64,000 bases of DNA, taken from contig OZ017804.1 in the NCBI GenBank assembly GCA_963969395.1, forward strand, positions 12,648,001 through 12,712,000. Reading direction: 5' to 3'. Below are positions 5,977-34,439 of this stretch, one piece after another. Position numbers and translations under genes: made by a program. The DNA is from Pseudoscleropodium purum. Lineage: Eukaryota > Streptophyta > Bryopsida > Hypnales > Brachytheciaceae. A model generated the notes under the pieces. That model had not been told where the DNA came from, did not search any database, and saw nothing but the letters and a program-made list of their open reading frames with translations. Each line of letters opens with the position of its first letter. The first letter of the stretch is position 1.

Positions 5977-6010
5977 CTGTGCAAGCATTGTAAAATCATT
6001 GGCATTACGT

Positions 6011-8480: not shown

Positions 8481-8495
8481 CTTGAGGGTGAAATT

Positions 8496-8990: not shown

Positions 8991-8999
8991 TTATGGGGG

Positions 9000-10050: not shown

Positions 10051-13000
10051 GTTTTTATGCAATAGCAGAACCGGTGCCTATGACCGTGCACCCATCCCGT
10101 GCCCATTGACATATAGGCTGGCAGCCGATAAGACAGCACAATAAAGTGTGCAAAACCAAAAAGCAGGACAACGAACATGAAAGATAGAGAAATGAGCAAA
10201 TCGCCTGTGCACTGAAGATAAAACAGTTGTAACATGGTCCCCATAGGAGATTCAAATAAATGTGATTTGTCAGCAGCCAACGGATACATATTAAAAATTT
10301 CAAAACTGACTAGTCATAAGACTTATAGTCACAACCTATAAGATATGAAGGCACACCCTAAAAGATATGAAGGCACATCCACAAATGAGTAAATATTGTG
10401 GATATGCATGTAATCATCTTGAAGTGAAAACATCCTATTCAAGAACCATGTGATCGACATGCAACGAAGCCCTTAGTATCGGTTGGCAGCCGACACCTGC
10501 AGCGAGGACTCGGATCCGTCTAGCAATGTGATGGTGACACAACTCCAGAGCTAAACTATTGTATCGGCTGGCAGCCGATAGGTCCGAGGCGATATGTCAG
10601 TAATCCTCTCCGCCCTCGTCTGCATCTCTGTCCAAAGCTGCCCCTGCGGCCTCCAGATTCGCAATAGCAGCAGCAACGGATGCCTCCGGGATGACATGAG
10701 ATGTGGGAGGTCCTTTCTTTGCATGCGAGGGCATTCTGTGCGAGTACAAGACAATGTTGACATGGACCATCTGCGGAAGACAGAGTTCCTTGTGCCATCT
10801 TTGGGTCCAGCACTCTTTCGCAATGAGCGCTTTTGACTCCCTCTTGGCTTTCATCGGAGTCCACCACTCAATTTTAAAATTACCATACGTGGGCCCCAGA
10901 GACATGTCCACACATTGGAATACCCGTCCCAGCCAAACAGGCAGATGATTGTTGTGACATAGTCGACAAAGAACAAAGTCTCCGAGCAGAACATCCCTGA
11001 ATGGATTAAATCTCAAGCGCGGCCTATCCTTCGCAGGTCCGTAGTATGGAGTGGGATCCCCTTCGTCCTATGGAGTGGTGTCTACTGAATAATTCTCCTC
11101 CGCCCCCTTGTCTACAAAAGTCGACGTGTGATCTCTTGTCCAGTCAGAGAGCGGCCATAATCCTTCTTGAAGCAATGCAGGAGTTTGAGGCAACGCCGAA
11201 TTGATCTCTGATTGAATTCTTTCCCAGTAAGCTACACAGCCTGCCATTTCTTGTGCGTACCGTCTATCTTTGGCCATTCCCGATTTCCAGAACTCAATGA
11301 ACTTTGCTATTCCGTTTTTGATGAATGTCTGTTTCTCATTGCACTCTGTAGCCCTTGCGACTTCCTTTTTTGCATTTCGCCTTCTGGTATTAATGTCCAC
11401 ATTCCCCTAGAGTGCCTTGAAAGGCACAGGTCGAGGGTCCCCCTGTGGAATATTGGGTTGTCCATTTTCGTCCGCTATCCACATTTTGACAAGTGCGCCA
11501 AGAGGCAGCCACGAAGAATCTGTGGCCCTGAGCTTGTACCTCATGACCGGCCATCCACGATCCACACCATCCTCCACAACGTAGAACTTGAAAAGGTGTT
11601 TATCTCCAAGCCCGATGATTTTGTTCACCCCATCATGATGGAAGCCCTTGAAGTATGATTTGAAGTCCGCCACTTCTTGCACGAACTCCGGAATGAAGGC
11701 TACAGTCTTCTGTGAATCCATGAACGCCTTCATGAGATCCGCAAGTACGTATGTGTTCTTCCTTTTGATCAGTTTAGAGAGATAACTGAAGTGCGCATCA
11801 ATGTCCTCGTGCGTATGCCCGACAATAAGGAACCCCACTGAAACTTCCTTGAATATGCGCTTGGTAGTGAGCAGTGAGCAGAAAGCCATGAGGAATCGAT
11901 TTTTGTTGTCCTTTGCTGAATTGTCGAGTTGCAAGAACAATTTCTTTGGAAGTGGGACCTGAGGTCGTCGTGGTCTCGCTGCGTCGATCACCATGTCCGA
12001 GGCTTGCGGGATTGACGAGTTGCATCTCGATTTCCCATAAAGCAGAGCCTCGAAGAAGGTGTTTAGCGGTGGAGTCGAGAAGAGGATCTTGGACTCCCGA
12101 ACAGGTGGTAGTTCTAGGGCCCTGAGGACCCTGCAGATGGACGAAATTGTGAAATTTGAATCCCCAAGCCAGAGTGATGTGGAGTAATGTGCATATGCGC
12201 CATCTCCATGTCCATGTGTGAGCATTCTAGTACACGAGATTGGTATTTGCCCTAGCCCTGCGGTGGCCTTGGTGATGCATTGCATCCTCGGAATGGCAGT
12301 CTTTGTGGTGTCCATTTTGTCATGAATAATGCAGAGGAACTCTGATGGATTTTGCACCGACTGTGCGGTCCATCCACTGTATACATTTCTACAAGCGCGC
12401 TGGTAATTGAGATGTCTCTCTCTGTCGTCGACCAGGGCCTGTCACTCATCACAACCTCTTGGATACTTTGCAATGAACTCTACTAGGAAGTCACATTCTG
12501 TGCATTTTGAGAAATTGCTCCCTACGGCCTTGACCTCTACGTTTTTGAAATGAGCATTCCGAAGGCGGTTGATAGCAGACTGCGAGACCGGCTTCATATT
12601 GCATATTCCATTGACTTGAAGAACATGACTTCATGGATGAGTTTCTATGGAAGACTATAGAGTTGTATCGGCTGGCAGCCGACAGAACTGCAAATGATGG
12701 CCTATAGAAAGGAAAGATCAATGGCTTCTACATTCAAAGTCCAGACATGATTTTATCGGCTGGCAGCCGATAAAAGGACTTTTCTACTGTAGACGAAAAG
12801 GCAAATGATGGATTTACATAATTGACTTGTTTGCGCATGTGATCCCAATTCATTGCAGAGGGGAGGACCTTGAGATTGTCGACGCGTTTATTTCCAACCA
12901 TTCTGAACTCGTTTGGCATTTTGTCGGCATTGTCGTCGATGATCGTTTTGAGGGTTGCTTGAGCTTGGATTGTTTGTGGCCGTGGCCGTCGGGCCCCTGC

Positions 13001-13187
13001 ATTTCCATGCGAGCCGTTAACAGATCCTCCCACGGCCGCAGCCTTGTAAACATGATAGGCCGACCTCGATACCCCGTGAATGATATACCATGCGTTCTCA
13101 CAGACGTCTATATTTGCAAGAGTAATGAATTTTTTTTCTGGAATAACCCCTGCATGAAGCTGACTCTGCACTACATACGCTACCTCC

Positions 13188-13443
13188 TATTGAGATTTAC
13201 AAAGTCATGTATGAGAGAAAGGCTTTACTTAGATGGTAGAACGACAACAAAGCCACATGAGCGGGCTCAACTTAAGCTAGAAGCCTTTCCTAGTTATCCA
13301 CAAACCATATGGGATAACTAACTACATTGGGTTGCCTTTGATTACGAGCAATACCCATTGACTCTAACATTAACTAAGTGTCTAAAGCTACTCCTAAGGC
13401 TAACTATACATGGTCTACGCTAGTATGTACAGAATCTCTAACA
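13188..13443 (-). repeat. Copia 3' LTR
   Basis: 256 bp, from TATTGAGATTTAC to AATCTCTAACA on the plus strand, and about 98% identical to the LTR at 21547. The polypurine tract lies just outside it at 13444-13453. Confidence 0.95.
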
Positions 13444-14804
13444 CTCCCACTTTGAAAGTGGTCAAAGGCACGAAGCCCCATCTTCTCAATGAAGCTTTGG
13501 TGTTGTGGCTTCCCAAGGGCCTTGGTCAGCACATCAGCAACCATAGCTTGGGTAGGCACATACTTGAGCTCAATCACCTCATCCTCCACTTGTTCATGAA
13601 TGAAATGGTGGCGCACATCAATATGCTTCGTCCGAGAGTGATGGGTGGGATTTTTGGCTAAAGCAATGGCCCCTTGGTTGTCACACTAGATGGGTGTGCT
13701 CCCCTCTTGCGCAAGACCAACATCAGCCAAGAGCTGCCTTAGCCAAATGGCCTCCTTCGTGGCTTGGCTCATGGCCATGTACTCGGCCTCCGTTGTAGAA
13801 AGAGCTATGGTGGGCTGCCTCTTGGAATTCCAAGTAATGGCACCCAATCCAAGCTTAAACACGTAGCCGGTGGTGGATCTCCTATCCCCTTCATCACCCG
13901 CCCAATCCGCATCATAATACCCATGCAAAGTCACATGGGCACCTCCAAGTTGCAACTCCATGCCAAGTGTGCCTTGAAGGTACCTCATCACCCTCTTTAC
14001 CGCTGCCCAATGTATTGGGCCATACTTGGACATGTGTTGACTCACAACACTCACCGGAAAGGCCAAATCAGGCCTTGTGGCTACCATGGCATACATCAAG
14101 CACCCAACCGCTGCCTTGTAAGGCACACCTTGCATTTCAGCCCTCACCTCCTCGAATTCTTCATCGGTGAGCTTGGGCAACTTTGCATGCGTGTCAAGTG
14201 GTGTACCTATGGCTTTGCACCCCTCCATGTTGAACCGCTTGAGAATCTCTTCAAAGTACTTGCGATGGCTCATGGTGATGGTGTGGGCAGCTCTATTCCT
14301 CTTGAACTCCACTCCAAGGCAATACTTCAACTCTCCAAGGTCGGTCATCTCATACTCCTTCTTGAGCATCGCCTTCACTTCAAGCATCTTGGGCATACTA
14401 CTTGCAAGGAGGATCAGATCATCCACATAGAGGATCACAATCACCAAATGCTCATGACTTTGCAAGGTGTACAAAGAGTGATCAGTGTGGCCTCTTCGAA
14501 ATCCCTTCCTCACAAACATGCCATCAATATCTCGATACCAAACTCTCCCCGATTGCTTCAACCCGGGGAGTGCCTTCTTCAACTTGCACTTCAAATGCTT
14601 TTGGCCTTCTTGCACAAAGCCTTGGGGCTGATCCATGTAGATGACCTCCTCCAACTTGGGGTTGAGAAAAGCCGTCTTCACATCCATTTGGTGCATCTCC
14701 AAGTCCATGGCTGCCCCAAGAGTCACAATGCACCGAATGGTGCTAAACTTGGCAACGAGGGCAAAGGTCTCATTGAAGTCCTCCCCTTCCACTTGGGAAA
14801 ACCC
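13404..14804 (-). pseudogene. Copia pol, RT C-terminal part and RNase H
   Basis: Reads ARGFSQVEGEDFNETFALVAK from the nested insertion point, then the RT active-site box YVDDLILLAS (about 14425) and the copia block LDTHAKLP/VGCLMYAM. The RNase H part contains DADWAGDEGDRRSTTGYVF and TTEAEYMAMSQATKEAIWLR. A TAG stop at about 13686 precedes CDNQGAIALAKNP, and the frame then continues to the LTR (KHIDVRHHFIHEQV). The upstream half of RT lies on the far side of the nested element, at 18085-18250. Confidence 0.9.
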
Positions 14805-15065
14805 CCTAGTGTCGCAGCTTAAAATTTTGATTTTCTTAGTATACACCAAAATAGGAACGGAAACTAGTCATTAGGGAACCGGATCCGATTAGGTGGAGAA
14901 GGAAAACTCAAAATTAGCACGGAACGTGAAGTAGTGGGCCTCTTGGATTTAATCCGGTCAGGAGTAACTATCAACGGAAACGGAATGCAACACGGATTAG
15001 GTCTAGGACCGGATTATGATGGTGAACCGGATTCATGATGACCAAACCAGAAAGGGTCCAGAGAC

Positions 15066-15072
15066 TATATAA
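15066..15072 (+). promoter_or_regulatory. TATA box of the 3.27-kb element
   Basis: TATATAA lies about 170 bases before the ATG at 15239 and is preserved in copy 2 at 30767. A second TATATAA at about 17048 in the 3' part may drive another transcript. Confidence 0.6.
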
Positions 15073-15238
15073 GGAGGAGCCTTCACTATTGCACCCCCTT
15101 TTAGAAACTCGACCTTGAGTGCGCGTGGTTGAGTTTTTGCGTTTGTGTGCTGCAGGCTTTGATTCCAGTTGAGATCGGAGAGAGAACGTGAGGAATGGGA
15201 CGTGCGGCTAGGAGAGAGTGAGATAGATTGGAGTAGGA

Positions 15239-16897
15239 ATGCCGCCGCTACGTAGGTCGAGACCAGCGAGTCCCTCTGGAGGCGAGGTGAAGCTCCGGAA
15301 AGTCATTCTGGTTATTTCCTCCACAGAGCCGGAAAAGTCTCAACTCATGGAGGATCTCACCTCTATGGGTTGCCTAGGGTTTGCAGAGAAACCCTGGGGT
15401 TTTAGGGAGGAGAGAATGGTCAAGGAACTCCTCGGCAAACTGTCCAACCAATTTGACAACACCGTGAGAGGAACTCCCATCCGCTGGAACGAGGGAATGT
15501 GGAGAGGTGTTTACGGTTTCTGGGCAGGAGGGTTAGGAATGGCAAACCAGAAGGATGAGTTTGTCCGAGGCAAGTTCCAGGGAGCCGTCAATCCGAAGGA
15601 CGGGTACGTGGTCGAGGATTGCGTGGATGACCGACACCGTCGGCTTCTGCAGTTCTTGGTTCCGGTCCTTCACCCAGAAAAGCCGACCAGGGTGACGATC
15701 ACCCTGGGCAATACGATTTTCGGTGCCCTAAGTGGTACTCGGAAAGTGGACTGGGCACGGATCATTTCCAATCTCGTGGCCCAGCTCATTAGTAGAGTTG
15801 GGAAGAAAAGGGCCACTCCAGTGTGCCCTTACCTCTTCCACCTCTATCGGGAAAACCAAGTCCTCACCGACGCGGAGGAGAAGGTGTGGAGGACTCAAGA
15901 AGTCCTCCTGAAGTATGGAGAGTCGGAAACGGATGACGAGGCCGAATCCGATTCCGGGTCAGACCGGGAGTCAAGCGAGGAAGAGGAGGAGCCGATGCCG
16001 CCCATCAAGCGACAGAAGTTGACGCCTCCCCACAAGCGCGGGACGCCTCCCGGTCACGACAAACCGGCCCCGGAAGAGAGACCGGAAGCCGAGAAGACCG
16101 TTTCCGGGGAAGACACGGAAATGCAAGATCCGTTCAACGGCCTCATCAACCTCCTCTGCAACATCAGGGCGGATTGGGAGGTCAAGCACAGGACGCTTTC
16201 GGCGATCGGAAAGTTGGTAGATGCGCCAATGGACAGTAAGTTGGCGGAACAGGTGGCGGAGTGCATCACCAATCCGGAAGAGACTCGGAAACAGGAAGCG
16301 GAGATCCGCCGGTTGTAGAAGGAGGTGGACACCCTGAAGGCAACTCTCTTTGCCTATCGGGAAGACGTGACGGCCACCCGAGAGATGGCGGAAGAGACTC
16401 GGAAGATAGCCGAGCATATCAAGGCGACCCTGGGAGAGACCGGAACGGCCGCCGCCAAAGCAAAGCTCTTCGACGAGAAGATCCACGAAGAGAAGAAACT
16501 ATCCGGTTTCCGGATGGTTCGGATTCTCACCGACTTTGCTGAGCAGGTGGAGACGGCGATGGTGGAGGGGCGGAAGGCTGCGGACCGGATTGAGGAAAGC
16601 AGCCGGAAGCTGACTAGAGCAACGTGCTCCAAGGGGATACATCTTTCGGACATATCGCTACCGGATATCTCTCCGGACGCGACCATTCCGAAGGATAGGA
16701 AGGATTGGACTCCCGAGTCCAAGAAGTCTGCACGGAATGAGACTCCGGGCACGAGACCGGATATTACAATCGACTTGGAGTCTTCATCCGGATCTAACCC
16801 TGGGGAGGGGGAACGGAACCGGAACTTGAGTGAAGTCTTCGAGCAGTTGGTTCCGGAGAGCAGAAGCCTGACAGTAGGATCTAGGATTGTAGAGTAG
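15239..16897 (+). pseudogene. Gag-like/plant transposon protein of the 3.27-kb element, with one nonsense codon
   Basis: Same protein as in copy 2 (30940-32601), but split by a single TAG at 16316-16318 where copy 2 has CAG (Gln). Otherwise it is collinear over 552 codons. The N-terminal half (about residues 35-200) is globular, with WNEGMWRGVY and VTITLGNTIFGAL. The middle is acidic (SDSGSDRESSEEEEE), the next part is a predicted coiled coil (residues about 320-460, rich in Glu/Lys/Ala), and the tail is Ser/Pro-rich. It resembles the N-terminal domain of 'putative plant transposon protein' families, but I cannot confirm this. Confidence 0.75.
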
Positions 16898-18084
16898 ATA
16901 GGATTTTGATTTCAGTTAGGAGTAGGAGCAGATCCGGATCCGGATCCGGCTCAACAGTATTAGGTTAGCCGGAAGTTAGATTAGGGTGGCGGCGGACCCC
17001 CACGGGTTTTCCGCTCCTTTTTGTGCTTTTAGGATTTTTACATTTGGTATATAAATCGGTTCCTGCGATGGGAACTGGGAGTCTTCATTTTGCAAATTTC
17101 TTGTGCCTTCCCCTTCTCCTCGTTGTATGTCTCTCTCCAGCGCGACAAGATTGTATGATGTGGAGTTAGGATAGTACGAGCTGGTTTGCGAGTGATTTCT
17201 CCCCTTGGTGTTCCTTTTCCGATCCTAGGTGCATGTGAGTAGGTATCTAAGAGTTGGGAGTGAACTTAGTTCCTCAGCACATCTAGAGTTTGAGATTCCA
17301 GGTGAGAAAGCCGTTGTTAGACTAGGCGGGTAGGGAGGGATTCCTTAGCTGCGCTAGAACTCCCGGGTGGGAAATCCGGTCGAGTATCCGATCTCCTGTG
17401 AGGTCTCGCCACCCGTGTGGGTAAACGGAAGAACTTTAGTTGATGTTGGAACGGACGAGTACACTTGTAACCACCTGTCTTCGTACGGATTGGAAGTAGC
17501 ATCAAGGTCGTTGTAGTATGAGAGGGTCGAGTGTGGGGTCTTTGTGTGACCTACAACCCGGATTGCTATCTGGGTTGTTGTGAAGGACCAAACCGGATCC
17601 GGATTAGCTTAGGAGTTTAGGAAGTAGGACAGTGGGTCTTCAGCCACTATAAGTCACGGAAGGAGTGGTGGGCCTACCACTCTCAAAATTAAGCGGCGAC
17701 CCCTCTGATGGTGAAACAGAGGCAAAACCAAACCGGATAGGATTACGGATACATGATGACCATCCGGACCGGATTGGTCAGGACGGATTTCCAGGACCGG
17801 AAGTTGTAAAGATCCTGGGATTTCGATATTTGCACAGACCGGATAGTTAGTAGGACCGGAAGAAGGAGTAATCCGGTCTATAGTTATCTGGTGTGGTGGT
17901 ATTTCTGGTTCTAGATCTAGGACCGGAAAGTAAGATTGGGATACTGACTGAGCTTAACTGCTTAATAGAGCTAGATACTTCACAGGATCTCGTGGGTTCG
18001 ATCTTTAGAGTCACTTAGTTATACTCTAGAGCGATTTTTGTGAGTATAATGGGGAATTTACCTGCCCTGTGCTGCGACACCTAG

Positions 18085-20793: not shown

Positions 20794-20882
20794 GGTGACG
20801 CAGCTCCCACTCGTACGCAAAGGCTGAAGGGTCTTCTTTTGCTGGTGTCGGCTGGCAGCTGATACAAGTGGTCACAGAGGAA

Positions 20883-20887
<5 letters not shown>

Positions 20888-20931
<44 letters not shown>
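20888..20931. repeat. 44-base poly(T) tract in the copia leader
   Basis: An uninterrupted T run on plus, which is poly(A) in the element's sense. It lies between the 5' LTR side and gag, and next to the copy of the palindrome at 20846. Such a tract may mark where foreign cDNA was joined to the element. Confidence 0.9.
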
Positions 20932-21546: not shown

Positions 21547-21802
21547 TATTGAGATTTACAAAGTCATATATGAGAGAAAGGCTTTACTTAGATGGTAGAA
21601 CGACAACAAAGCCACATGAGCGGGCGCAACTTAAGCTAGAAGCCTTTCCTAGTTATCCACAAACCATATGGGATAACTAACTACATTGGGCTGCCTTTGA
21701 CTACGAGCAATACCCATTGACTCTAACATTAACTAAGTGTCTAAAGCTACTCCTAAGGCTAACTGTACATGGTCTACGCTAGTATGTACAGAATCTCTAA
21801 CA
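21547..21802 (-). repeat. Copia 5' LTR
   Basis: 256 bp. It is followed inward (minus strand) by GGTTATGGGCCCACGC, a possible primer binding site that does not look like the usual plant initiator-Met site. Confidence 0.92.
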
Positions 21803-23270: not shown

Positions 23271-23279
23271 AACAACTCC

Positions 23280-24585
23280 CTTCTACATTTTCAATCTTCC
23301 CGAGCCTCCATTTTTCGTGAATGCCTCAATAGGACTTGCACCCGATGTCCAGTCATCAGATCCACTCATGATTTGAAATCGGAGTCAGAACCCACAATGT
23401 CGGAATCTCTGTCAGACCCGTGATGACCTTATCGGCTGGCAACCGATACGTCTGTGTACCTGGTGCTTCACGACCTTCCTGGTACAGAAATTGGTATCGG
23501 CTGGTAGCCGATACCACTGTCCGTACGGTCAAGCATAGAGGCAGGACCGTACAGCTAGAACTTTGGGGATCATGCACGAAGCTAGATTTTGCGCTTCCTA
23601 TGATCTAAGCACTGTCCACAGATGCTCTGACCAGTAAAAATAATGAAATGGAAACACATGTGCAACCGAATAGGAAATCCTGAACCTTTGTCAAGCAACT
23701 AATTTCCGAGAATGCTCCTGACTACTACTGCAATTCAAATGTAGCTTGGAGCAATTCAAATCCTATTGCAAATCCTACATAAGCCTAAACGCCAAATAAC
23801 AACTATCGAAGAGCACTTCCTGAACCCGAAGACTACTCAATGCTGCACTGAACTGAGGTCTACTGAATTCCCTGTCACGTTGCATCCCTCATAAACATTC
23901 CACAACAAGCTATTGCAATTCCCTGACGGTTTTTGGACGCTCTGAGTGCGTGTGTGGGGCAAATGAAAATGAAAATGGAAGTCCTCCAAGATCTGATCCT
24001 AGGTGAGTAAGCCTGAAACTGAATTTGGCGCCTGAAATTTGAATCTGGAAGAGGATGAAGTTGTGGTGATTACAAGAGAGACAAGTCTGTGCATCGGGAG
24101 ATCGTGTTGGGAAACGTACGCATCTCTACAATGAGTGTTCGTAACTTCCATGTACTTTGCTGGATGTGGAGTACATGCTAATGGATGAAAACCTACGATG
24201 GATGAAATTTATGGAAGAACGGACTCGGTTTGTCATGATTGCGCCTACTAGCTGGCAACCGAGGGTTTAGGGGGTATATACCCCTAGCCACTTTCATTTT
24301 CTCTCATTTGCCATTTGCGTCTCCTACTCTCTCTCTGTCACTCACTCTCACTCTCACTCACTCTCACTCACTCTTAGCTTCACTCACTCTCACTCTGCCA
24401 TTCTCCCTCCTTCAGTTCGGCTTGCAGCTGACATCCCCTCGCAAAGCAAAGTAGCAGCTGATACATCTTAGCGTAGCGATACGCATTTCTGGCCAGCCGA
24501 CAGTGAAGGAGAGTGAGGCAAGCGTGCTTTTTCAGCAGCCGACAAGTCATCTTCAGCAACCGATAAGCGACAGAGTCCATTGGCG
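23280..24585. promoter_or_regulatory. Divergent intergenic region with palindromes and half-sites
   Basis: Separates the minus-strand genes from the plus-strand genes of the block. It contains full palindromes at 23430 and 23495, a degenerate one at about 24247, a CT-rich (CTCACT)n stretch at 24325-24400, and half-sites CAGCTGACA, CAGCTGATA, CAGCCGACA, CAGCAGCCGACA and CAGCAACCGATA between 24425 and 24565. It is a likely shared promoter; the CT-rich tract could be a 5' UTR. Confidence 0.45.
24325..24400. repeat. CTCACT microsatellite
   Basis: Imperfect repeats of CTCACT/CTCTCT just upstream of the plus-strand gene start at 24586. Pyrimidine-rich tracts of this kind are common in plant promoters and 5' leaders. 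Confidence 0.75.
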
Positions 24586-27500
24586 ATGGCGTCCTCCGAT
24601 TTGGCGACTGAGAGGTACTTTTCACTACATGTATCGGCTGCCAGCCGATACACTGTCATTTGTTATATCATATAGGATAGCCATTGAGATTCTGAGGCAC
24701 CTATTACTTGCTATATCGGCTAATAGCCGACATACATTGCAGCACTCACTAGGAGCCTGAGCTTAAGCTATGTCGGCTGGCAACCGATATGATCCCGGGA
24801 CGGTTGACTTAGGAATTTCTAGAAATGTCTTCCGACGGTAGGGTTTAGGGACTGAGAGGTTGTATCGACTGGCAGTCGATACAGTGGATGCACAAAGTGA
24901 AGGTGCATAGTGTGAGTGTACTGAGAATTCAATTGTATTGTTCTGTAGGAAACCGACTCTCTTGGCCCGCCTTCTGGGAAAGCAAATCCCAAACTCTCGG
25001 ATATTGAGAGACGAGTATCCACCGAGGGCAACATGGCGAGCAATCGAGGCCATCCAAGAATGGGGTTTGTGTTGGAGGCAGTTACCCGACACGACAGTGG
25101 AGATCGTATGCTCCTTCAAGCTGAAAGGGAACATGACCCCTGGCAAAGGAAGTGTATTGTCCGTCATGGCTGTTGGCGATTCCGTGCACGTCATGATATG
25201 CTTGATGCCACTGGGAAGCACGGATGGAGTTGCCGATTATTTTGCGGTGGAGTATCCGGTGAACAAGTGCACGGAGGAGGTCTATGGACAGAAGTCAATG
25301 TTGATGGGCATGACGTTCGCGGGAAACACGCCGTCCAGTGCAGAGGACCTCATCCAGGGTTGGGAGTGCTTGAAGATAGAGCACGATGAACACAATGCGT
25401 TCATCGCTCGTGAGTTGGAAAAGGGGAAGAAAAAGGTACCCTCGGCGAGGAAGCAAGTGGCGGCGCTAGTGACTGAAGTCGCTGCAACTGATCTGCAGGA
25501 GACCGGGTCGCCCAGCAAACCGAAGGCCAGGGACGACCCCAACAAGCCACTGAAGCTGACACTCGACGAGGCACTCCGGCGTGGAAATCATCTCACAACC
25601 AAGATGAAGGAGAACAAGGTGAACGCTATTTACTAGGTGTTGGAAACAGGGCTCTTGCACGCATTTCCTTACAAAAAGCAGCGTCTTCCGGGGGTCATTC
25701 ACTCGGACAAATTCCACATTGCACCGAACGAGTTGAAGTACCGGAAGATTGCAAAGGACTGACTTGGCCAGGTAATTCGACAATCACTTCCATCCTTTAC
25801 TAGTTTTTATCTTCCCATATAATGTATCGGCTGGCAGCCGACATCTGTAGCTGGTCTTTAATATTTTGGCCTTCTCTCAATTCAGGTGAAGACCATGTAC
25901 AAGGGATACGGATCCATCAGGAAGAAGCCGGAAATCCATGGGATTCCTTTAAAGCGGGCTCCACTGCCAACGAACAAAGGGCTAGACGCCGTGATGGACG
26001 AGTGTCTCGGGAAGGAACAGACTGTTGTTGTCGATGGCATCTCAATGCCATGGTGGAAGGCGCCAAATGTCCACTGGTATATCATTGGTGGGCAACACAC
26101 AGTGACGGCCTGTCGAGAATTGGCCGAGCAATATCCGAACGGCTTTGAAGCCAAAACCGACCTCCTGGAGTTCGAGGTCATTCTGGTATTCAGTAGAGAC
26201 CCGGACACACTCGTCAGAGTCTCCAATGCCCTCAATCTCAACATCGCGGAGAAAGTGGCAAAGGAGACCTTCAGATCCTACGCAGAGATGGGAAGAGCGG
26301 CGTGGGTGAAGGCGGGGTGCCCAGAGCCACATCGTGGAGGTGGAAAGCCGTCAGCAGCATTTGAGGTAATTCCCACGCACCTTTATTTTTTTCTCCCTTT
26401 TGATTAATATATTATGTATCGGCTGGCAGCCGATACCATTCTCGCATGTTCTAAACATTGTGGTGGAACTCCTCCAGGTTGCGAAGCTGAAGGTAATGGC
26501 ACACTTCCTAGATGAGAAGGTGTTCTCCAAGTTGCCCCTCATCTTCATCAAGGAGACCACCTGGGTGCTATGGACGGAGGTCTTCGATGCGTGGGAGAAC
26601 GGGGAGCTTATTGGAGATGATGGGACTGTGCCAAATCTCCTCGTCAATCGAAAGCCACTCACTCACATCACCAAAACGGATCTCACACCAACGCTGGGGC
26701 TTCGGAATTCGGATCTGTGCGAGCTAGGGCGGGAGATTGTTACACTTCGCATGAGCATCAAGAACACCGCGAAGGCCAAGTCCTCGGGGAAGATCACTCT
26801 CTTCGACTAGTGCAAGGACAAAAAGCTGGACAGGATCGTCATGAACGAGATCATGTGGACTAGGAAGAAGCATCCCCTTTCTTGCAAGGACCAGGGCTGG
26901 ACCCCATATACTGACGAGGATTGGATGGAGCTTGCTGAAAAGGAGGGGTACTCAGAGGCTGTAGTCCGAAACGTCTGGAAGGACATGATGAAGTTCACGG
27001 ACGCCAACAACTGGTTGAAGGGGCGAGTAAACCCTATGAATCCAACAACGGACAAGTCAACGGATGGCAAGGCGCCGGGGGTCTTCTTCATGACGTTGGC
27101 GAACTACGCCAAAGTCGAAATGCCTCCGATGCTTGGGAAGTCCGCCGAACTGAAATACGAATGCTATGTCGGAGAGAGTATTCCTAAGGTGGTCGACTTC
27201 GTCCGTCAATTGAAGGGGAATATGGCACTGGAACCCGAGGACAAAAAATTCATTGTCCTCTTTGGGTATACAGATATGGGGAAACCGGTTCCAGTGAACA
27301 AGAACGATCTGCTCAATCTAGCACTGGCCGCTGAAATCCCTGAGGTGGACGGTTCGAATATCGAAGAGACCGAAGCGTACATCCCCCTGCCAATGCTCCT
27401 CATCGGGAACTTGCGTTTCCGAGATTCTGTCGCGACGACCTCGTACGCGTCCTCGTCCTCTTGGTACTACCATTCGGTGTACTATCAGCCATCTCCCCGT

Positions 27501-28735
27501 GGAGGCTTTCAGAAGGCGGAGATTGAATCCATGCCTTTGGTCACTCTGTCCTTGACCTTCCCGAAGCGTGAGGACAAGTCTAGTATTTTACCCGGTCTTC
27601 AAGCGCTTCATTGGGATCAACAAGGCGCCCGACTAGTTCAATGTCGACATTGAGGGCGAGGTCGACTGGAATGGCGGGATGTGCGGGGTTGGTCATGGAC
27701 TTCTAGAGAAATTGATGATGCCAATCCTAAAATCCAAGGATGCCACCGTCATCAACATCTGGGGGGGCGGAAACATCACAGAGATCGCTCTGGTAAGTTT
27801 TCTTATCCCTTCCTCACATTTGCATTGTTCAGAGGAAGTGAAATCCTGTCGGCTAGCAGCCGATACAACATGTTACTCACTTGTACTCCATGGGTTCGCA
27901 AAGGAATGGACGGGCCGTCATGGAGTTCGTTCGGGAGGAGGACGGATTGCAGAAGGCCACGGAACGTGTGAGGGAAATGAACCTCATCTCCTCGGCTTCC
28001 TTGGGACCTTCTTCGGGGACGCCTGCGCTGACAGACCGGGGGGGCGCAAGCGGATCAGGGCAAGTGTCACCTGCGGCATCACATCAGCAACCGCGGCCGA
28101 TCTCGACCCTCAATCTAACGGAGACTCCGGGTGGCGTTGCTCAATCTCAACGGCCGTAGGGTCAGTCTTAGGAGCGACCAGCACTTCAGATGTTTCAGAT
28201 TGACTCAGACAGTGATGGCCCCTCGGAAGAGACACTCATTCGAAGGTAGCGACAACGACGTCCTTCATCTCCACGGCGTTCTTTCAGTCTCCCCCCAGCT
28301 CCAAATTCGGAGTCGCACAGGATGCTCCGACCGGGAAATTCATCGGTCGCAATGGTCGTGGACTTGCACGTTCAGCCACCGTCAAAGGAGATTCGCAGGA
28401 TTCCACAAGCTCTAGTGGTCAGTCCTGCAACAGAGCCTCAAGTGGGAGTCACTGCAATTGGCCGCCCGGCTACTGTAGCTGACATTAGTATCAGCTGCCA
28501 GCCGACACCCATGGTGGTTTCCCCGCCTGAACCACGACGGGGAAGAAGCAAGTCGGCCACGGTCAAAAAAGAGTCGGAGTCGGCAGACTCGCGGAGGTCA
28601 ACTCGGGTTCAGCAAAAGCGGAAACGACCGAGTGATGAGGAAGACGGTGGCGCGGCGGCGCGGGAACAGGACTTCCCAAATGAAGCGATGTCTCCCGCTC
28701 GATCTCAGAGGCGAGCTCAGACTGGAGGTTCGTAG
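24586..28735 (+). pseudogene. ParB-like/DNA-methylase-like fusion gene of the palindrome-marked block
   Basis: Exons by GT-AG borders and frame: 24586-24614 (MASSDLATE), 24949-25771, 25886-26365, 26478-27792, then a last exon from about 27860 or 27904 to 28735. Exon 3 has WYIIGGQHTVTACRELAEQ, matching the ParB/Srx-type GxxR-like box and its helix. Late exon 4 has VINIWGGGNITEIAL followed in exon 5 by GRAVMEFVREEDGLQKATERV. This is laid out like the FxGxG motif and following strand of beta-class DNA methylases. ParB domains joined to such methylases are known in phages and plasmids. No DPPY motif is visible. Stops occur at 25634 (TAG), about 25758 (TGA), 26808, 27634, 28157, 28169 and 28247 (all TAG), with a frameshift near 27590. 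The C-terminus is basic (RSTRVQQKRKRPSDEEDGG). Each well-placed intron holds at least one palindrome. Confidence 0.5.
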
Positions 28736-28899
28736 GCAATAGACATGCTCCGCGATGTTTGTGGAGTATCTAAAATAGCTCATGTATACGTAGCACTGCC
28801 TGGCTCAGACTTGTGCATAGACTTGTCAGTAGGAGCCTTCATCTCGGCAGACTAGAGTACTTATGGACTATGTCGGCTGCCAGCCGATACAGTGCATGA

Positions 28900-29787
28900 A
28901 TGTTTTGTCATGTACCTAAGTTCATTGCATCTCATGCTCTATGTATTTCGTTTTGCAATGCAAATGATGACTCCAAAACTTTTGAGAAATTCCCCGCCAC
29001 CGCGTCTGAAGGTGGGCAGGAATGTGACAAACCAGCTCTAGAAGAAAGGGCAGGGAAATCGTCTAGTGCTGGCCCGTCTCAGGTAGCGACTCCGAAGTTG
29101 GTTCTTTTCCTTGAGGTTCAGAGAACTCTGCTCTTCTATGAGCCCCTCATTTTAAAAGGGAAAAGTATGCATCAGAGGTCGCAAGTAAGAGCTCGACCAG
29201 GTCTTCAGGAGTTCATCAGGTTCTGTAAGGGTCAAGACATTCAGATCGTTTATTGGTCGCATTTATCCAAGCAGACTCTTGAGCAGCGTCTTCATAACCT
29301 GAAATGGAAGGCGCCGGATATCGGAGACAATTACCTAGCTTTTGGACAAGAGTACTGTGACGAGAGTGCTTATCGAGACCCTCAGAATCCCACACGACCA
29401 ATTTTTCTGAAGCGTCTCGCAAGGATTCTCGGGTCATCCTCCTTGTACGATAATGGGGCCACGATCAACAACTCATTGATCGTGGATCACGAGCCCTGTC
29501 GGAACGTTTTGAATCTGCCATATAGTGTGATTCATCCACCTCCGGTTACTATGTATTCGGAGAGTTCGTTGAAGGGTGGAAAACTGCCTTATCTCCAAGC
29601 GACGCTCATCCCGTTCATTGAACGGTTTTTGTCTTCGGGACTCATGGTCCCAGAGTTCTGTCAAAAGAACTCTTCAGTTGGGATTGCACGCTGTATGCCG
29701 AGCTCTCTTCTTCATAATCAGTTTGTGAATGTGACACTGCCATATCAAAAGGGATTCGAGGTGCCATATTCACTGGAGGAGCTATAG
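28900..29787 (+). CDS. FCP1/NLI-interacting-factor-like phosphatase domain protein A
   Basis: A long open frame. From about 29095 it reads PKLVLFLEVQRTLLFYEPL, then ARPGLQEFIRFCKGQDIQIVYWSHLS, FGQEYC, and SLIVDHEPCRNVLNLPYSVI. The order (short strand, long insert, RPGL helix, 'VYWSHLS', late 'DHEP') is that of the HAD-fold FCP1/SCP family. The nucleophile motif DLDxT is replaced by LEVQR, so both catalytic Asp residues appear lost; binding or regulatory use, or decay, is likely. The true start is uncertain. The frame ends in TAG at 29785, and a palindrome follows 48 bases later. Confidence 0.5.
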   Translation: MFCHVPKFIASHALCISFCNANDDSKTFEKFPATASEGGQECDKPALEERAGKSSSAGPSQVATPKLVLFLEVQRTLLFYEPLILKGKSMHQRSQVRARPGLQEFIRFCKGQDIQIVYWSHLSKQTLEQRLHNLKWKAPDIGDNYLAFGQEYCDESAYRDPQNPTRPIFLKRLARILGSSSLYDNGATINNSLIVDHEPCRNVLNLPYSVIHPPPVTMYSESSLKGGKLPYLQATLIPFIERFLSSGLMVPEFCQKNSSVGIARCMPSSLLHNQFVNVTLPYQKGFEVPYSLEEL

Positions 29788-30766
29788 GCCATGGGAATTC
29801 CTACCCCACGGGACCTAATGGAGGAGGCGTAGTGTATCGGCTGCCAACCGACACATATTTTTGTAAATTGTATATATTCTCTGTAGATAAAGGAGGATGT
29901 CTAGAGACTATATCTTTTGTGTACATTATTTTCTTTTGTATTGATTAAACAATTTTTTTGTAATGAAGGCATTTCAGTCCGATTTTTCCTAAAGCTTGCG
30001 CATAGGACACTCACTCTCAAAGCATTCAAATGTTTCCTTTGAGAGTTTCAGCATTAGGTCTTGGTCATTCTAATCAAGTGATCGCAATAATATAGGTGCA
30101 GGCATTCACTCATCTGTGCACAATCTATCTGGCACCTTTTGTTTGTTTCTCAATATGAATTATTGGCTGCTGTCTTGTGTCAGGCCGCAGTATCGGCTAC
30201 CAGCCGATATCAACTGGCTTGTCTTCTTTCAGTGGATGTTGATGTTGTATAATCTTGTAGCTACTAACTCATGTTCTGTTCAAGAGTCCAACGTGGGCCA
30301 TCCATAGTCGTTCAAAAATGTGTGGTTCTATGCGTCACGGGACTACTTTGTTATCTCGACCCGAATATCAAGGTGGACAAGTCGGACCCGCACAGAAATG
30401 TCATTAAAAGGCCAGGGCTAGTTGCAATGTTCATGACACTGTTTGAAAAGTTCCATGTAGGAATTTGGTCCAGAATGCCAATAGTTGATCTTAGGCCTCT
30501 GCTTGCGCACTTTGTCGCAGCATAAAATTTTGATTTTCTTGGCATGCACCAAAATAGGAACGGAAACTAGCCATTTGGGAACCGGATCCGATTAGGTGAA
30601 GAAGGAAAACTCAAAATTAGCACAGAACATGAAGTAGTGGGCCTCTTGGATCTAATCCGGTCAGGAGTAACTATCGACAGAAACGGAATGCACGACGGAT
30701 TAGGTCTAGGACCGGATTATGGGTGAACCGGATTCAAGACGACCAAACCGGAAAGGGTCCAGAGAC

Positions 30767-30773
30767 TATATAA
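30767..30773 (+). promoter_or_regulatory. TATA box of copy 2
   Basis: TATATAA lies about 170 bases upstream of the ATG at 30940, in the same context as in copy 1 (GAGACTATATAAGGAGGAGC). Confidence 0.6.
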
Positions 30774-30939
30774 GGAGGAGCCTTCGCAGTTGCACCCCCT
30801 TTTAGAAACTCGACCTTGAGCGCGCGTGGTTGAGTTTTTGCGTTTGTGTGCTGCAGGCTTTGATTCCAGTTGAGATCGGAGAGAGAACGTGAGGAACGGG
30901 ACGTGCGGCTAGGAGAGAGTGAGATAGATTGGAGTGGGA

Positions 30940-32601
30940 ATGCCGCCGCTACGTAGGTCGAGACCAGCGAGTCCCTCTGGAGGCGAGGTGAAGCTCTGGA
31001 AAGTCATTCCGGTTATTCCCTCCACAGAGCCGGAAAAGTCTCAACTCATGGAGGACCTCACCTCTATGGGTTGCCTAGGGTTTGCAGAGAAACCCTGGGG
31101 TTTTAGGGAGGAGAGAATGGTCAAGGAACTCCTCGGCAAACTGTCCAACCAATTTGATAACATCGTGAGAGGATCCCCCATCCGCTGGAACGAGGGAATG
31201 TGGAGAGGTGTTTACAGTTTCCGGGCAGGAGGGTTAGGAATGGCAAACCGGAAGGATGAGTTCGTCCGGGGCAAATTCCAGGGGGCCGTCAATCCGAAGG
31301 ACGGGTACGCGGTCGAGGATTGCGTGGATGACCGACACCGTCGGCTTCTGCAGTTCTTGGTTCCGGTCCTTCACCCAGAAAAGCCGACAAGGGTAACGAT
31401 CACCCTTGGCAACACCATTTTCGGTGCCCTAAGTGGTCCCCGGAAAGTGGACTGGGCACGGATCATTTCCGATCTCGTGGCCCAGCTCATTAGTAGAGTT
31501 GGGAAGAAGAGGGCCAGTCCAGTGTGCCTTTACCTCTTCCACTTCTATCGGGAACACCAACTCCTCACCGACGCGGAGGAGAAGGTGTGGAGGACTCAAG
31601 AAGTCCTTCTGAAGTATGGAGAGTTGGAAACGGATGACGAGGCCGAATCCGATTCCAGGTCAGACCGGGAGTCAAGCGAGGAAGAGGAAGAGCCGCCGAT
31701 GCTGCCCATCAAGCGACAGAAGATGACGCCTCCCCACAAGCACGGGACACCTCCCGGTCACGACAAACCGGCCCTAGAAGAAAGACCGGAAGTCGAGAAG
31801 ACCGTTTCCGGGGAAGACACGGAAGTACAAGATCCGTTCAACGGCCTCATCAACCTCCTCTGCAACATCAAGGCGGATTGGGAGGTCAAGCACAGGACGC
31901 TTTCGGCGATCGGAAAGTTGGTAGATGCGCCAATGGACAGTAAGTTGGCGGAACAGGTGGCGGAGTGCATCACCAATCCGGAAGAGACCCGGAAACAGGA
32001 AGCGGAGATCCGCCGGTTGCAGGAGGAAGTGGACACCCTGAAGGCAACTCTCTTTGCCTATCGGGAAGACGTGACGGCCACCCGAGAGATGGCGGAAGAG
32101 ACTCGGAAGATAGCCGAGAAAATCAAGGCTACCCTAGGAGCGACCGGAACGGCCGCCACCAAAGCGAAGCTCTTCGACGAGAAGATCCACGAGGAAAAGA
32201 AACTATCCAGTTTTCGGATGGTCCGGATTCTCACCGACTTTGCTGAGCAGGTGGAGACGGCGATGGTGGAGGGGCGGAAGGCTGCGGACCGGATTGAGGA
32301 AAGCAGCCGGAAGCTGACTGGAGCAACGTGCTCCAAGGGGATACATCTCTTGGACCTCTTGCTACCGGATATCTTTCCGGATGCAACCGTTCCGAAGGGT
32401 GGGAAGGATTGGACTCCCGAGTCCAAGAAGTCTGCACGGAATGAGACTCCGGGCACGAGACCGGATATTACAATCGACTTGGAGTCTTCATCCGGATCTA
32501 ACCCTGGGGAGGGGGAACGGAACCGGAACTTGAATGAAGTCTTCGAGCAGTTGGTTCCGGAGAGCAGAAGCCCGACAGTAGGATCTAGGGTTGTAGAGTA
32601 G
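30940..32601 (+). CDS. Gag-like/plant transposon protein of the 3.27-kb element (full length, about 553 aa)
   Basis: It begins MPPLRRSRPASPSGG (basic). A globular domain at about residues 35-205 includes GCLGFAEKPWGFREERMVKE, WNEGMWRGVYSF, VTITLGNTIFGAL and VDWARIISDLVAQLISRVGK. An acidic stretch (ESDSRSDRESSEEEEEPP) follows, then a Pro/Lys linker, a long charged coiled coil (about 340-470) and a Ser/Gly/Pro-rich tail. It has no zinc knuckle, protease, RT or DDE motif. The domain pattern suits a structural or DNA-binding protein (gag-like, or a TNPA-like accessory protein binding the ACCGGAT repeats). Function not established. Confidence 0.7.
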   Translation: MPPLRRSRPASPSGGEVKLWKVIPVIPSTEPEKSQLMEDLTSMGCLGFAEKPWGFREERMVKELLGKLSNQFDNIVRGSPIRWNEGMWRGVYSFRAGGLGMANRKDEFVRGKFQGAVNPKDGYAVEDCVDDRHRRLLQFLVPVLHPEKPTRVTITLGNTIFGALSGPRKVDWARIISDLVAQLISRVGKKRASPVCLYLFHFYREHQLLTDAEEKVWRTQEVLLKYGELETDDEAESDSRSDRESSEEEEEPPMLPIKRQKMTPPHKHGTPPGHDKPALEERPEVEKTVSGEDTEVQDPFNGLINLLCNIKADWEVKHRTLSAIGKLVDAPMDSKLAEQVAECITNPEETRKQEAEIRRLQEEVDTLKATLFAYREDVTATREMAEETRKIAEKIKATLGATGTAATKAKLFDEKIHEEKKLSSFRMVRILTDFAEQVETAMVEGRKAADRIEESSRKLTGATCSKGIHLLDLLLPDIFPDATVPKGGKDWTPESKKSARNETPGTRPDITIDLESSSGSNPGEGERNRNLNEVFEQLVPESRSPTVGSRVVE

Positions 32602-34439
32602 ATAGGATTTTGATTTCAGTTAGGAGTAGGAGCAGATCCGGATCCGGATCCGGCTCAACAATATTAGGTTAGACCAAAAGTTAGATTAGGGTGGCGGCGG
32701 ACCCCCACGGGTTTTCCGCTCCTTTTTGTGCTTTTAGGGTTTTTACATTTGGTATATAAATCGGTTCCTACGATGGGAACTGGGAGTCTTCATTTTGCAA
32801 ATTTCTTGTGCCTTCCCCTTCTCCTCGTTGTATGTCTCTCTCCAGCGCGACAAGATTGTATGATGTGGAGTTAGGATAGTGTGAGCCGGTTTGCGAGTGA
32901 TTTCTCCCCTTGGTGTTTCATTTCCGATCTTAGGTGCATGTGAGTAGGTATCTAAGAGTTGGGAGTGAACTTAGTTCCTCAGCACATCTAGAGTTTGAGA
33001 TTCCGGGTGAGAAAGCCATTGTTAGGCTAGGCGGGTAGGGAGGGATTCCTTAACTGCGCTAGAACTCCCGGGTGGGAAATCCGGTCGAGTATCCGATCTC
33101 CTGTGAGGTCTCGCCACCCGTATGGGTAAACGGAAGAACTTTAGTTGATGTTGGAACGGACGAGTACACTTGTAACCACCTGTCTTCGTACGAATCGGAA
33201 GTAGCATCAAGGTTGTTGTAGTATAAGAGGGTCGAGTGTGGGGTCTTTGTGTGACCTACAACCCGGATTGCTATCTGGGTTGTTGTGAAGGACCAAACCG
33301 GATCCGGATTAGCTTAGGAGTTTAGGAAGTAGGACAGTGGGTCTTCAGCCACTATAAGTCACGGAAGAAGTGGTGGGCCTACCACTCTCAAAATTAAGCG
33401 GCGACCCCTCTGATGGTGAAACAGAGGCAAAACCAAACCGGATAGGATTACGGATACATGATGACCATCCGGACCGGATTGGTCAAGACGGATTTCCAGG
33501 ACCGGAAGTTGTAAAGATCCTGGGATTTCGATATTTGCATAGACCGGATAGTTAGTAGGATCGAAAGAAGGAATAATCCGGTTTATAGTTATCCGGTGTG
33601 GTGGTATTTCTGGTTCTAGATCTAGGACCGGAAAGTAAGATTGGGATACTAACTGAGCTTAACTGCTTAATAGAGCTAGATACTTCACAGGATCTCGTGG
33701 GTTCGATCTTTAGAGTCACTTAGTTATACTCTAGAGCGATTTTTGTGAGTATAATGGGGAATTTACCTGCCCTGTGCTGCGACACACTTGCTTCCAAAAC
33801 ATATCAGAGACAACCTAGCGTTCGTTTATGGCAGAGAGTACTGTGTAGATAGCCAGAATTTCCCGTGGTGCTACAAAATGCTCTCAATACTTCACACTAA
33901 GAGACCATCCAGGATGACATGCTTCACGGACCAAGTGCTCATGGTCGATGTGTGCCCGCTTTCGCTCAGAAGGACGCCGGATCCGGCGTGCTATATTCCG
34001 CTACCATGTACGGAGGATCTCAATTTCCCAAAGATTAGTAGAGTTATTCCGAACATTTCAACAGATATTATTCCATTCATTTATCCCATATACGAGCATG
34101 AGTCAGTCTCGGAATACATGAAAGGTGCAATCAGACCGAGACAATTACACTATGAGGTTGCACAGTCAATCAAGTACGGGAAGCCAAACTGGAATGGGAT
34201 ATTCTGGTGATTTGCCCTAAATGGTGTCGGTTGCCAGCCGATACCCTTGTAGAGTGGAATCGGGGGGGCTTGAATACCTTCCAATCTCGTCCCCTTTACC
34301 TTATTCACAAATTTGAACTGCTTTATTGTCAACGCCAGTCTTATCGAATCGACTGCCTCTTCACTTCAAGACCTGTTCTCTGGAGTTTTCTGAGGGGGAT
34401 ATCGGCTACCAGCTGATATTGAGTTCAGAGCATCCAATT

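What the first reader, a model, noticed from the sequence alone, without database searches (positions are those of the whole stretch)
10112..34418. About 24 copies of a 19-21 bp palindrome, irregularly spaced
Consensus TATCGGCTGGCAGCCGATA with near-perfect dyad symmetry. One such 19-mer is not expected by chance in 64 kb, and two dozen in 24 kb demand a mechanism. Options are a parS-like or transposase binding site, an RNA triloop hairpin, or a miniature mobile sequence. A ParB-like domain in the same block makes the binding-site idea attractive but unproven.
Basis: partly seen in the sequence, partly recalled or inferred. Interest (0 to 1): 0.92.

Follow-up and report, generated by a model that had tools for sequence, protein, structure and literature searches.

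The report
Palindrome array in moss DNA transposon
The two dozen near-identical palindromes are built-in signal sites of a large jumping gene of a probable moss, perhaps docking sites for a protein that the element makes itself, and an unrelated retrotransposon in the same genome has picked up and multiplied one of them.

Summary
In detail: 22 places at up to 3 mismatches (shuffles: 0) lie at 10112-34418. All but one (20846) belong to one copy of a ~13.1 kb cut-and-paste DNA transposon (terminal inverted repeats, 4-bp target duplications in 10 of 10 full copies read, DUF7869 transposase-like gene), split here by two nested insertions. The host is probably a moss; its genome holds 2793 forward hits at up to 3 mismatches (reversed control 3). 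Ten full copies share 24 sites at fixed places, with majority form T-R-TCGGCTG-S-CAGCCGA-Y-A and featureless flanks. Relatives (36-73% identity; some named as mosses) show the site, in translation, at corresponding introns and protein linkers. One lineage reads as a version changed symmetrically in both halves (inferred). A Copia family captured a fragment of the transposase gene and carries 1-3 palindrome units between LTR and gag (39 of 40 gag-anchored copies). I think these are half-site pairs for an element-encoded dimeric DNA-binding protein, acting as element-wide expression or anti-silencing signals, as VANC motifs do in VANDAL elements. No binder is identified. ParB/parS is not supported: no ParB_N match. 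Existing copies show no protection from methylation-type decay.

The parts
9870..34418 (.). One copy of the ~13.1 kb DNA transposon; element segments 9870-13187, 21802-30512, 33785-34418; right end (~430 bp with right TIR) missing
   Evidence: blastn against 10 full copies, ends and TSDs of those copies
9870..9896 (+). Left terminal inverted repeat AACCTATATTTAACTAATTATGGACAA; the right TIR of full copies is AACTGATATTTAACTAATTATGGACAA (reverse complement)
10112..10130 (.). palindrome (aln col 244)
10477..10495 (.). palindrome (col 609), downstream of gene 1
10562..10580 (.). palindrome (col 694), downstream of gene 1
10597..12630 (-). gene 1, second ORF block: DUF7869 transposase-like (677 aa open in copies C and I; interrupted in the window copy)
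   Evidence: Pfam PF25273 E 2e-39 for 11407-12357
12666..12684 (.). palindrome (col 2798) in the presumed gene 1 intron
12754..12772 (.). palindrome (col 2886) in the presumed gene 1 intron
13188..21801 (-). nested insertion: Copia retrotransposon (RVT_2 13686-14849; gag/integrase 18101-20620), with a 557-aa-ORF sequence inside (14971-17953)
20846..20864 (.). palindrome of the Copia element, upstream of gag; derived from gene 1 of the transposon
21802..23378 (-). gene 1, first ORF block (continues at 12773-13187; 674 aa open in copy B), holding sites 22659 and 23013 in linkers
22659..22677 (.). palindrome (col 4172), in ORF linker
23013..23031 (.). palindrome (col 4526), in ORF linker; source of the Copia unit
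23430..23448 (.). palindrome (col 4943), upstream of gene 1
23495..23513 (.). palindrome (col 5008), upstream of gene 1
24632..24650 (.). palindrome (col 6302), between genes 1 and 2
24714..24732 (.). decayed palindrome (col 6384), between genes 1 and 2
24771..24789 (.). palindrome (col 6441), between genes 1 and 2
24863..24881 (.). palindrome (col 6533), between genes 1 and 2
24911..28735 (+). gene 2: ORF blocks 24911-25636, 25862-26407 (ParB-looking by eye only), 26400-27653 and on to 28735; no Pfam family in the blocks scanned
25825..25843 (.). palindrome (col 7999) in presumed gene 2 intron
26417..26435 (.). palindrome (col 8591) in presumed gene 2 intron
27847..27865 (.). palindrome (col 10021) in presumed gene 2 intron
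28489..28507 (.). palindrome (col 10666), inside a gene 2 ORF
28871..28889 (.). palindrome (col 11048), 10 bp upstream of the presumed gene 3 ATG
28900..34210 (+). gene 3 (28900-29787; about 30220-30512 + 33785-34210): weak NIF/FCP1-like phosphatase match
   Evidence: PF03031 E 5.5e-6, above cut-off, in copy H; E 0.0017, below cut-off, for window 28900-29787
29835..29853 (.). palindrome (col 12014)
30191..30209 (.). palindrome (col 12370)
30513..33784 (+). second nested insertion, with a 555-aa ORF (30934-32601) very similar to the one at 15239-16897
34225..34243 (.). palindrome (col 13128), just after gene 3
34400..34418 (.). palindrome (col 13304) at which the window copy breaks off; full copies continue with sites 13497 and 13687

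Best explanation
The palindromes are about 24 internal copies of one recognition site of a ~13 kb DNA transposon of a probable moss. Each site is two 9-bp half-sites (TRTCGGCTG) in inverted order around one base, the shape expected for a protein that binds DNA as a symmetric dimer. Shown: a sharply bounded site, fixed positions in the copies, and its appearance, in translation, at corresponding introns and linkers in relatives. Inferred: the binder is encoded by the transposon itself, since the site seems to change in both halves and at several places together between transposon lineages. Also inferred, and least certain: bound protein marks the whole element as self and keeps it, or lets it become, transcriptionally active (anti-silencing or enhancer-like), as VANC does on the motifs of VANDAL transposons. 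A Copia retrotransposon exploits the same signal after capturing a transposase-gene fragment that contains it and multiplying the site just downstream of its LTR.
For: Majority sites at 24 positions agree in at least 21 of 24 at 17 of 19 bases (sites turned so that the centre is G/A); beyond the adjacent base the flanks carry at most 0.27 bits. Sites are under-represented in coding sequence supported by relatives: 4-5 of 24 in the ~50% so covered, P 0.0006-0.003 in three copies. Sites are read through at corresponding introns in relatives P0001, P0003, P0007, P0008 (6 strict hits in 127 proteins, shuffled mean 0.185, max 2). The two linker sites of gene 1 recur in relatives at 36-55% identity; [IV]GGPP[IT] (30 matches, 20 of 33 proteins, shuffled mean 0.005) and VGCPPT (5 matches, 3 of 33, shuffled 0) look like lineage versions; P0155 shows the CGG version in another frame (YVSAARRY). 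In the own genome the list for the CGG version begins at 2 mismatches. Gene 1-derived unit in Copia: 42 units in 20 pieces, 16 of 20 with two or three (pieces mostly chosen for having it); 39 of 40 gag-anchored copies carry it (two of the 39 judged from alignment coverage only). A transposase site would not obviously help a retrotransposon; a regulatory site could. VANC motifs are likewise in non-coding parts and multiply by tandem repeats (PMC5735166, passages).
Against: No binding protein is identified; no known DNA-binding domain was found in the ORFs scanned. Copies decay by C>T/G>A at CG and CHG, and sites decay as their sequence context predicts (obs/exp 0.91); CG decay does not fall near sites (Spearman -0.049, P 0.08, if anything higher near them) nor does CHG decay (0.002), so no lasting demethylation is visible. 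Copia retention could be hitchhiking from one founder. The lineage switch is read from translations, not DNA; in the linkers protein constraint could contribute; in the JGI group the first linker reads ISCRLT, IGCRLI or IGCRPT and VGRQP[TI] stands about 18 residues past the aligned second place. Non-coding preference depends on how coding is defined: 17 of 24 sites fall inside some raw stop-to-stop ORF of 150 aa or more on either strand of some copy. The sites are not VANC-like one-orientation arrays.
Confidence: 0.45

Rival explanations
1. The sites are transposase-binding sites that act in transposition itself (assembly of the synaptic complex, or protection of the element from inserting into itself), like subterminal repeats of other DNA transposons but spread through the whole element.
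For: Site 13687 lies about 45 bp inside the right end and 244 lies about 242 bp inside the left. Centre-base orientation is biased by position (left of col 10300 G 14, C 2; right G 0, C 7; Fisher P 1.5e-4; the cut was chosen after seeing the data), which recalls inverted arrangement about the two ends. Gene 1 encodes the transposase-like protein.
Against: Sites are spread over 13 kb in introns, linkers and between genes rather than clustering at ends. Copia, which does not use this transposase, captured and multiplied the site.
Confidence: 0.2
2. The sites bind a host protein (a plant transcription factor or architectural protein) that both element types exploit.
For: Two unrelated elements carry it. 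The site persists over deep divergence of the element.
Against: Copia took it from the transposon, not independently. The inferred version change between lineages is easier with a co-evolving element protein. No plant genome other than the own one could be searched at the DNA level.
Confidence: 0.15
3. ParB/parS-like loading: a ParB-like protein of gene 2 loads at the palindromes and spreads over the element.
For: Gene 2 exon reads IIGGQHTVTACREL...LVRVSNALNLNI, which by eye resembles ParB N-domain boxes (recalled); palindromic sites at most ~2.1 kb apart.
Against: ParB_N PF02195: no match at E<=10 in the own genome; Pfam none at E<=5; the AlphaFold model is useless (pLDDT 38), so the fold was not tested; no HTH family matched.
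Confidence: 0.06
4. RNA hairpins: the palindrome acts in transcripts (splicing, processing, small-RNA source).
For: Many sites are in presumed introns; the arms could form an 8-9 bp stem; a symmetric lineage version (inferred) would keep pairing.
Against: Positions 2 and 18 vary independently. Sites lie between genes and in terminal regions as well as in introns and coding linkers. No Rfam match in the window.
Confidence: 0.07
5. Miniature mobile palindrome that spread through the element.
For: Near-identical short copies with unrelated flanks.
Against: Same positions in the 10 copies and no shared flanking duplications; the number differences looked at come from tandem duplication of longer segments; relatives show it at corresponding places.
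Confidence: 0.04

Closest known systems
VANDAL transposons and VANC anti-silencing motifs (Arabidopsis; Hosaka et al. 2017, PMC5735166; passages read)
   Same: Short motif repeated through the non-coding parts (introns, upstream regions) of a plant DNA transposon family, concentrated in that family; motif versions differ between families; number of motifs changes by tandem duplication.
   Different: The VANC21 motif is 9 bp (YAGTATTAY), arrayed in one orientation at high density; here 19 bp, dyad-symmetric, dispersed. No DUF1985/VANC match found. No binding or demethylation shown here.
Spm/En and Ac subterminal transposase-binding repeats (recalled; search found no paper)
   Same: Multiple copies of a short binding motif inside a plant DNA transposon, recognised by an element protein.
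   Different: Those sit in the terminal few hundred bp (recalled); here they are spread over 13 kb including introns and protein linkers.
ParB-parS partition sites (recalled)
   Same: Palindromic site of about 16-20 bp in several irregularly spaced copies.
   Different: No ParB_N match; eukaryotic nuclear transposon.
DUF7869 proteins of mosses and liverworts (Ceratodon purpureus, Physcomitrium patens, Riccia sorocarpa entries)
   Same: Gene 1 matches this family (PF25273).
   Different: The entries are single predicted proteins; no paper in the searched library names DUF7869, and the listings showed no description of the palindrome array.

Membership tests
Cut-and-paste DNA transposon (class II, TIR) | terminal inverted repeats | tested here: met
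   left AACCTATATTTAACTAATTATGGACAA, right (rc) AACTGATATTTAACTAATTATGGACAA
Cut-and-paste DNA transposon (class II, TIR) | constant-length target-site duplication | tested here: met
   4 bp in 10 of 10 full copies, read by eye; the window copy itself lacks its right end
Cut-and-paste DNA transposon (class II, TIR) | transposase with catalytic acidic triad | tested here: inconclusive
   PF25273 E 2e-39; D104, D236, D276, D278 at 0.97-0.98 in 95-117 of 121 rows; catalytic role inferred
VANDAL/VANC-type anti-silencing system | motif repeated mainly in non-coding parts of one transposon family | tested here: met
   19-20 of 24 sites outside relative-supported coding sequence, which covers about half; 21 of 24 outside my own ORF blocks; clustered genome-wide, though also in the Copia family
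VANDAL/VANC-type anti-silencing system | encodes a VANC (DUF1985) protein | tested here: not met
   no such Pfam match in the ORFs scanned
VANDAL/VANC-type anti-silencing system | loss of DNA methylation by the motif-binding protein | tested here: inconclusive
   only indirect: no reduced CG/CHG decay near sites
ParB-parS | ParB N-terminal domain | tested here: not met
   by sequence profile; the fold could not be judged, model pLDDT 38
Copia (nested insertion) | gag, integrase, RVT_2 and LTRs | tested here: met
   Pfam Retrotran_gag_2, rve, RVT_2; LTR boundaries only partly read

The most novel reading that the evidence does not exclude
Mosses harbour a lineage of large DNA transposons that mark their own DNA from end to end with a 19-bp dyad site read by a co-evolving element-encoded dimer, a second, independent invention of VANC-type self-recognition; and a Copia retrotransposon has stolen and tandemly amplified this cis-signal, one transposon class parasitising the self-mark of another.
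Probability: 0.3. Interest if true: 0.85.

Novelty: new variant of a known kind. Interest (0 to 1): 0.7.

Why it matters
How transposons tell their own DNA from the host's, and how they escape silencing, is known in molecular detail for few elements. A palindromic, strongly constrained site with apparent lineage-specific versions, in relatives from mosses with good genetics (Physcomitrium), makes that question testable outside flowering plants. The Copia capture is a natural experiment: if the site helps an unrelated element, its role is regulatory rather than mechanical.

Tried and rejected
Rfam scan of the window: nothing. tRNAs: none. PADLOC scan: nothing; NCBIfam: two matches far below cut-off. 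PDB sequence search with the ParB-looking exon: nothing. AlphaFold of the ParB-looking exon with 2 sequences: pLDDT 38, discarded; no fold search made. AlphaFold of a relative of gene 1's first block (P0128) with 33 sequences: mean pLDDT 42; only residues about 66-152 confident (beta-rich); Foldseek gave no match at E<=1e-3, with weak CAP-Gly, tudor and BAH-type rows not used as evidence. Search for gene 2 relatives in IMG/VR: 24 pattern matches, none confirmed. Motif in IMG/VR: 2 stretches; in bacterial/archaeal genomes: 14 stretches, single sites, near what chance gives for that pattern by my own rough estimate of 7-8.

Tested for post-insertion protection of sites: none found. Tested RNA pairing at positions 2/18: no covariation. 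KDZ and Sola assignments considered from memory, not tested; listings only. Searches (TnpA/Spm; ParB in Physcomitrium transposons) found no paper.

A claim weakened on checking: my first coding test (3 of 24 sites in ORF blocks covering 69.7%, binomial P 9e-9) used block limits that I had trimmed around sites at ORF edges. With coding defined by tblastn of all 157 fetched relatives, 4-5 of 24 sites lie in the ~50% covered (P 0.0006-0.003 in copies B, H, G); some of those (2798, 2886, 7999) may be covered only because predicted proteins read through introns.

Rows dropped before counts: of 28 site columns, the 24 used are those present in 9 or 10 of 10 copies; dropped were 5072 (1 copy), 5137 (2), 6682 (6), which I take for tandem duplicates, and 5905 (7 copies, 3-4 mismatches). 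Of 138-170 candidate element copies (40 scored each) 10 full ones were read. Of the 40 gag-anchored Copia copies (the window's own included) the site was judged from fetched pieces, listed pattern places, or, for two, alignment coverage alone; two have 3-4 mismatches; L069 lacks it. The 20 Copia pieces were chosen mostly because they showed the unit, so 16 of 20 is not an unbiased rate of tandem copies.
Full report
Observation. The palindrome is real and far beyond chance: 22 distinct places at up to 3 mismatches between 10112 and 34418, shuffles 0; 23 with looser rules. The window lies in a 313 Mb genome of 52 contigs, which gives 2793 forward hits at up to 3 mismatches against 3 for the reversed pattern.

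What carries the sites. DNA from the window recurs at 94-97% identity in nearly all of 40 scored places for each of two queries, with 138 and 170 candidates. Comparing the window with 10 full copies shows one element of about 13.1 kb, represented in the window by 9870-13187, 21802-30512 and 33785-34418. 13188-21801 and 30513-33784 are later insertions; the first holds a Copia retrotransposon. The ends carry inverted repeats, and 10 of 10 full copies are flanked by a 4-bp duplication, read by eye: AACT, ATAT, AAAT, AGAG, CTTA, ATAG, AAAA, GAAT, GATA, CTTA. The window copy lacks its right end: it stops at palindrome 34400-34418, followed by 33-36 bp of inverted right-end sequence.

Genes. Gene 1 (minus strand) has two long ORF blocks; the second holds DUF7869 (E 2e-39) with near-invariant acidic residues D104, D236, D276 and D278, so I take it as the transposase. 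Its best-named relatives are Ceratodon purpureus (70 and 68%), Physcomitrium patens (66%) and, further off, Riccia (36%). Together with CG/CHG-type decay (0.063 and 0.070 against 0.0057 for A/T positions) this makes a moss host likely; it was not shown otherwise. Gene 2 (plus) has no Pfam family in the blocks scanned. Gene 3 (plus) has a NIF/FCP1-like match (E 5.5e-6). Exon limits are inferred from ORFs and relatives, not from transcripts.

Anatomy of the site. In the 10 copies, 24 sites sit at the same alignment columns in 9 or 10 copies. Their majority form is T-R-TCGGCTG-S-CAGCCGA-Y-A; the information falls to 0.27 bits or less outside, apart from a preference for G and C at the adjacent bases (0.65 and 0.40 bits). 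Against coding sequence supported by relatives, which covers about half of the element, 4-5 of 24 sites lie inside (P 0.0006-0.003); my own, partly circular ORF blocks gave 3 of 24 against 69.7%. Others lie in presumed introns, between the divergent genes 1 and 2, downstream of genes and near both ends. Positions 2 and 18 vary independently (12 A/T, 7 A/C, 4 G/T, 1 G/C; P 0.63), which speaks for half-sites read separately by a protein and against a needed RNA pair. The centre base is G at 14 of 16 sites left of column 10300 and C at 7 of 7 scorable sites right of it (P 1.5e-4; cut chosen after seeing the data), unexplained.

Decay. Sites decay at about the rate their context predicts (obs/exp 0.91; raw site rate 0.035 against 0.019 in 60-bp flanks, because sites are rich in CG/CHG), and CG/CHG decay does not depend on distance to a site. 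The uniformity of the sites therefore dates from the active lineage; the copies read look like dead, methylated ones. This gives no support to a lasting demethylating effect.

Relatives. Gene 2 relatives (7 found, 37-68% identity) include predicted proteins that run on into introns, where the palindrome appears in translation at the corresponding place: P0007 CRLPADT, SAGSRY, CIGCQPIH; P0001 FYRLPADI; P0003 SAGSR. P0008 (73%) has CRLPAD and an AGCQPIH variant before the second block of gene 1, where the own element has sites 2798 and 2886. In the 127 proteins then held, 6 strict matches were found against 0.185 in shuffles. The two sites inside gene 1 recur at or near the same linkers in relatives: the loose peptide [IV]G..P[IT] occurs 57 times in 33 of 33 proteins, shuffled mean 0.91, maximum 4. 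Versions go by lineage: V-G-[CR]-Q-P in the own element, [IV]GGPP[IT] in Physcomitrium and most of the ENA proteins, VGCPPT in Ceratodon and P0128. A JGI group has VGRQP[TI] about 18 residues past the aligned second place and a degenerate first one (ISCRLT, IGCRLI, IGCRPT). IGGPPI read as ATC GGC GGS CCG CCG ATA would be the site TATCGGCGG-S-CCGCCGATA, changed symmetrically in both halves. P0155 has the same version in another frame (YVSAARRY) and P0015 has VGGPPT in the intron region, which argues for DNA-level constraint. These codon readings are inferred; Ceratodon VGCPPT reads as an asymmetric hybrid, and protein-level constraint in the linkers is not excluded. In the own genome the list of places for the CGG version starts at 2 mismatches, where CTG-type sites match, so I take the CGG version to be absent at 0-1 mismatch.

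Copia. Site 20846 belongs to the nested Copia. Its family (642 candidates, 315 with a gag query, 40 scored in each) carries a palindrome unit between LTR and gag, repeated at a spacing of 55-67 bp: 42 units in 20 fetched pieces, 16 of 20 with two or three (pieces mostly chosen for having it). Anchored on gag alone, 39 of 40 scored copies carry it (two by alignment coverage only). The unit comes from gene 1: L034 holds 77 bp of gene 1 at 97% beside two units, and L069, which lacks the palindrome, holds 155 bp of gene 1 at 98% starting at the same gene 1 base. That stretch matches 3 of 5 relatives tested at 47-56% as protein (the two without a match are predicted proteins that begin later), so the transfer ran from transposon to Copia. 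Of the 20 pieces only L034 still shows the other gene 1 stretch beside the unit. This is what a useful signal would do, but a single founder could also explain it.

Mechanism. I favour a binding site for an element-encoded symmetric dimer (about 0.75 for a protein-binding site, 0.6 for an element-encoded binder) acting in expression or anti-silencing (about 0.4). The closest parallel is VANC on VANDAL21 motifs, in non-coding parts and multiplying by tandem repeats (PMC5735166, passages). Here too the number of sites varies (23-28 per copy), in part by duplication of segments of about 65 and 149 bp. Differences are the dyad symmetry, length, dispersion and missing VANC protein, so it may work like VANC motifs but is not filed as that system. 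The ParB idea fails the sequence tests.

Novelty. Searches for DUF7869 (0 papers), moss transposon palindromes, transposase-binding and subterminal terms, Sola and KDZ names, bryophyte anti-silencing, TnpA/Spm (0 papers) and ParB in Physcomitrium transposons (0 papers) showed no description of this array. Only listings were seen, apart from the passages of PMC5735166, and most subscription journals are not in the library.

Noticed in passing
window 14971-17953 and 30717-33658: Two closely similar ~2.9 kb sequences with a 555-557 aa ORF of no Pfam family, one inside the Copia insertion and one as a separate insertion in gene 3 of the transposon; likely a further repeated element.
   Followed up: partly
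L034, L069, L032-L051: Copia elements carrying fragments of the DNA transposon's gene 1 between LTR and gag, with the palindrome unit tandemly repeated in many.
   Followed up: yes
window 34400-34452: The window copy breaks exactly at a palindrome and continues with 33-36 bp of inverted right-end sequence, a fold-back-like junction.
   Followed up: partly
alignment columns 244-13687 of the element: Centre base of the palindromes switches from G to C about three quarters along the element (14:2 versus 0:7).
   Followed up: partly
L026:4478-5338 (window about 30220-30512 + 33785-34210): NIF/FCP1-like phosphatase match in a DNA transposon; by eye the usual DxD motif seems lost.
   Followed up: partly
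window 26841-27700: Gene 2 relatives P0001-P0003 share a NIWGGGNxTEI-like stretch just before an intron, recalling a glycine-rich cofactor loop; fold unknown.
   Followed up: no
window 8697-8892: 96-nt inverted repeat arms (85% complementary) with 4 nt between, outside the element; possibly a foldback element.
   Followed up: no
window 834-1022: 63-bp unit repeated 3 times at 92% matches, unit length a multiple of three, possibly a coding repeat.
   Followed up: no
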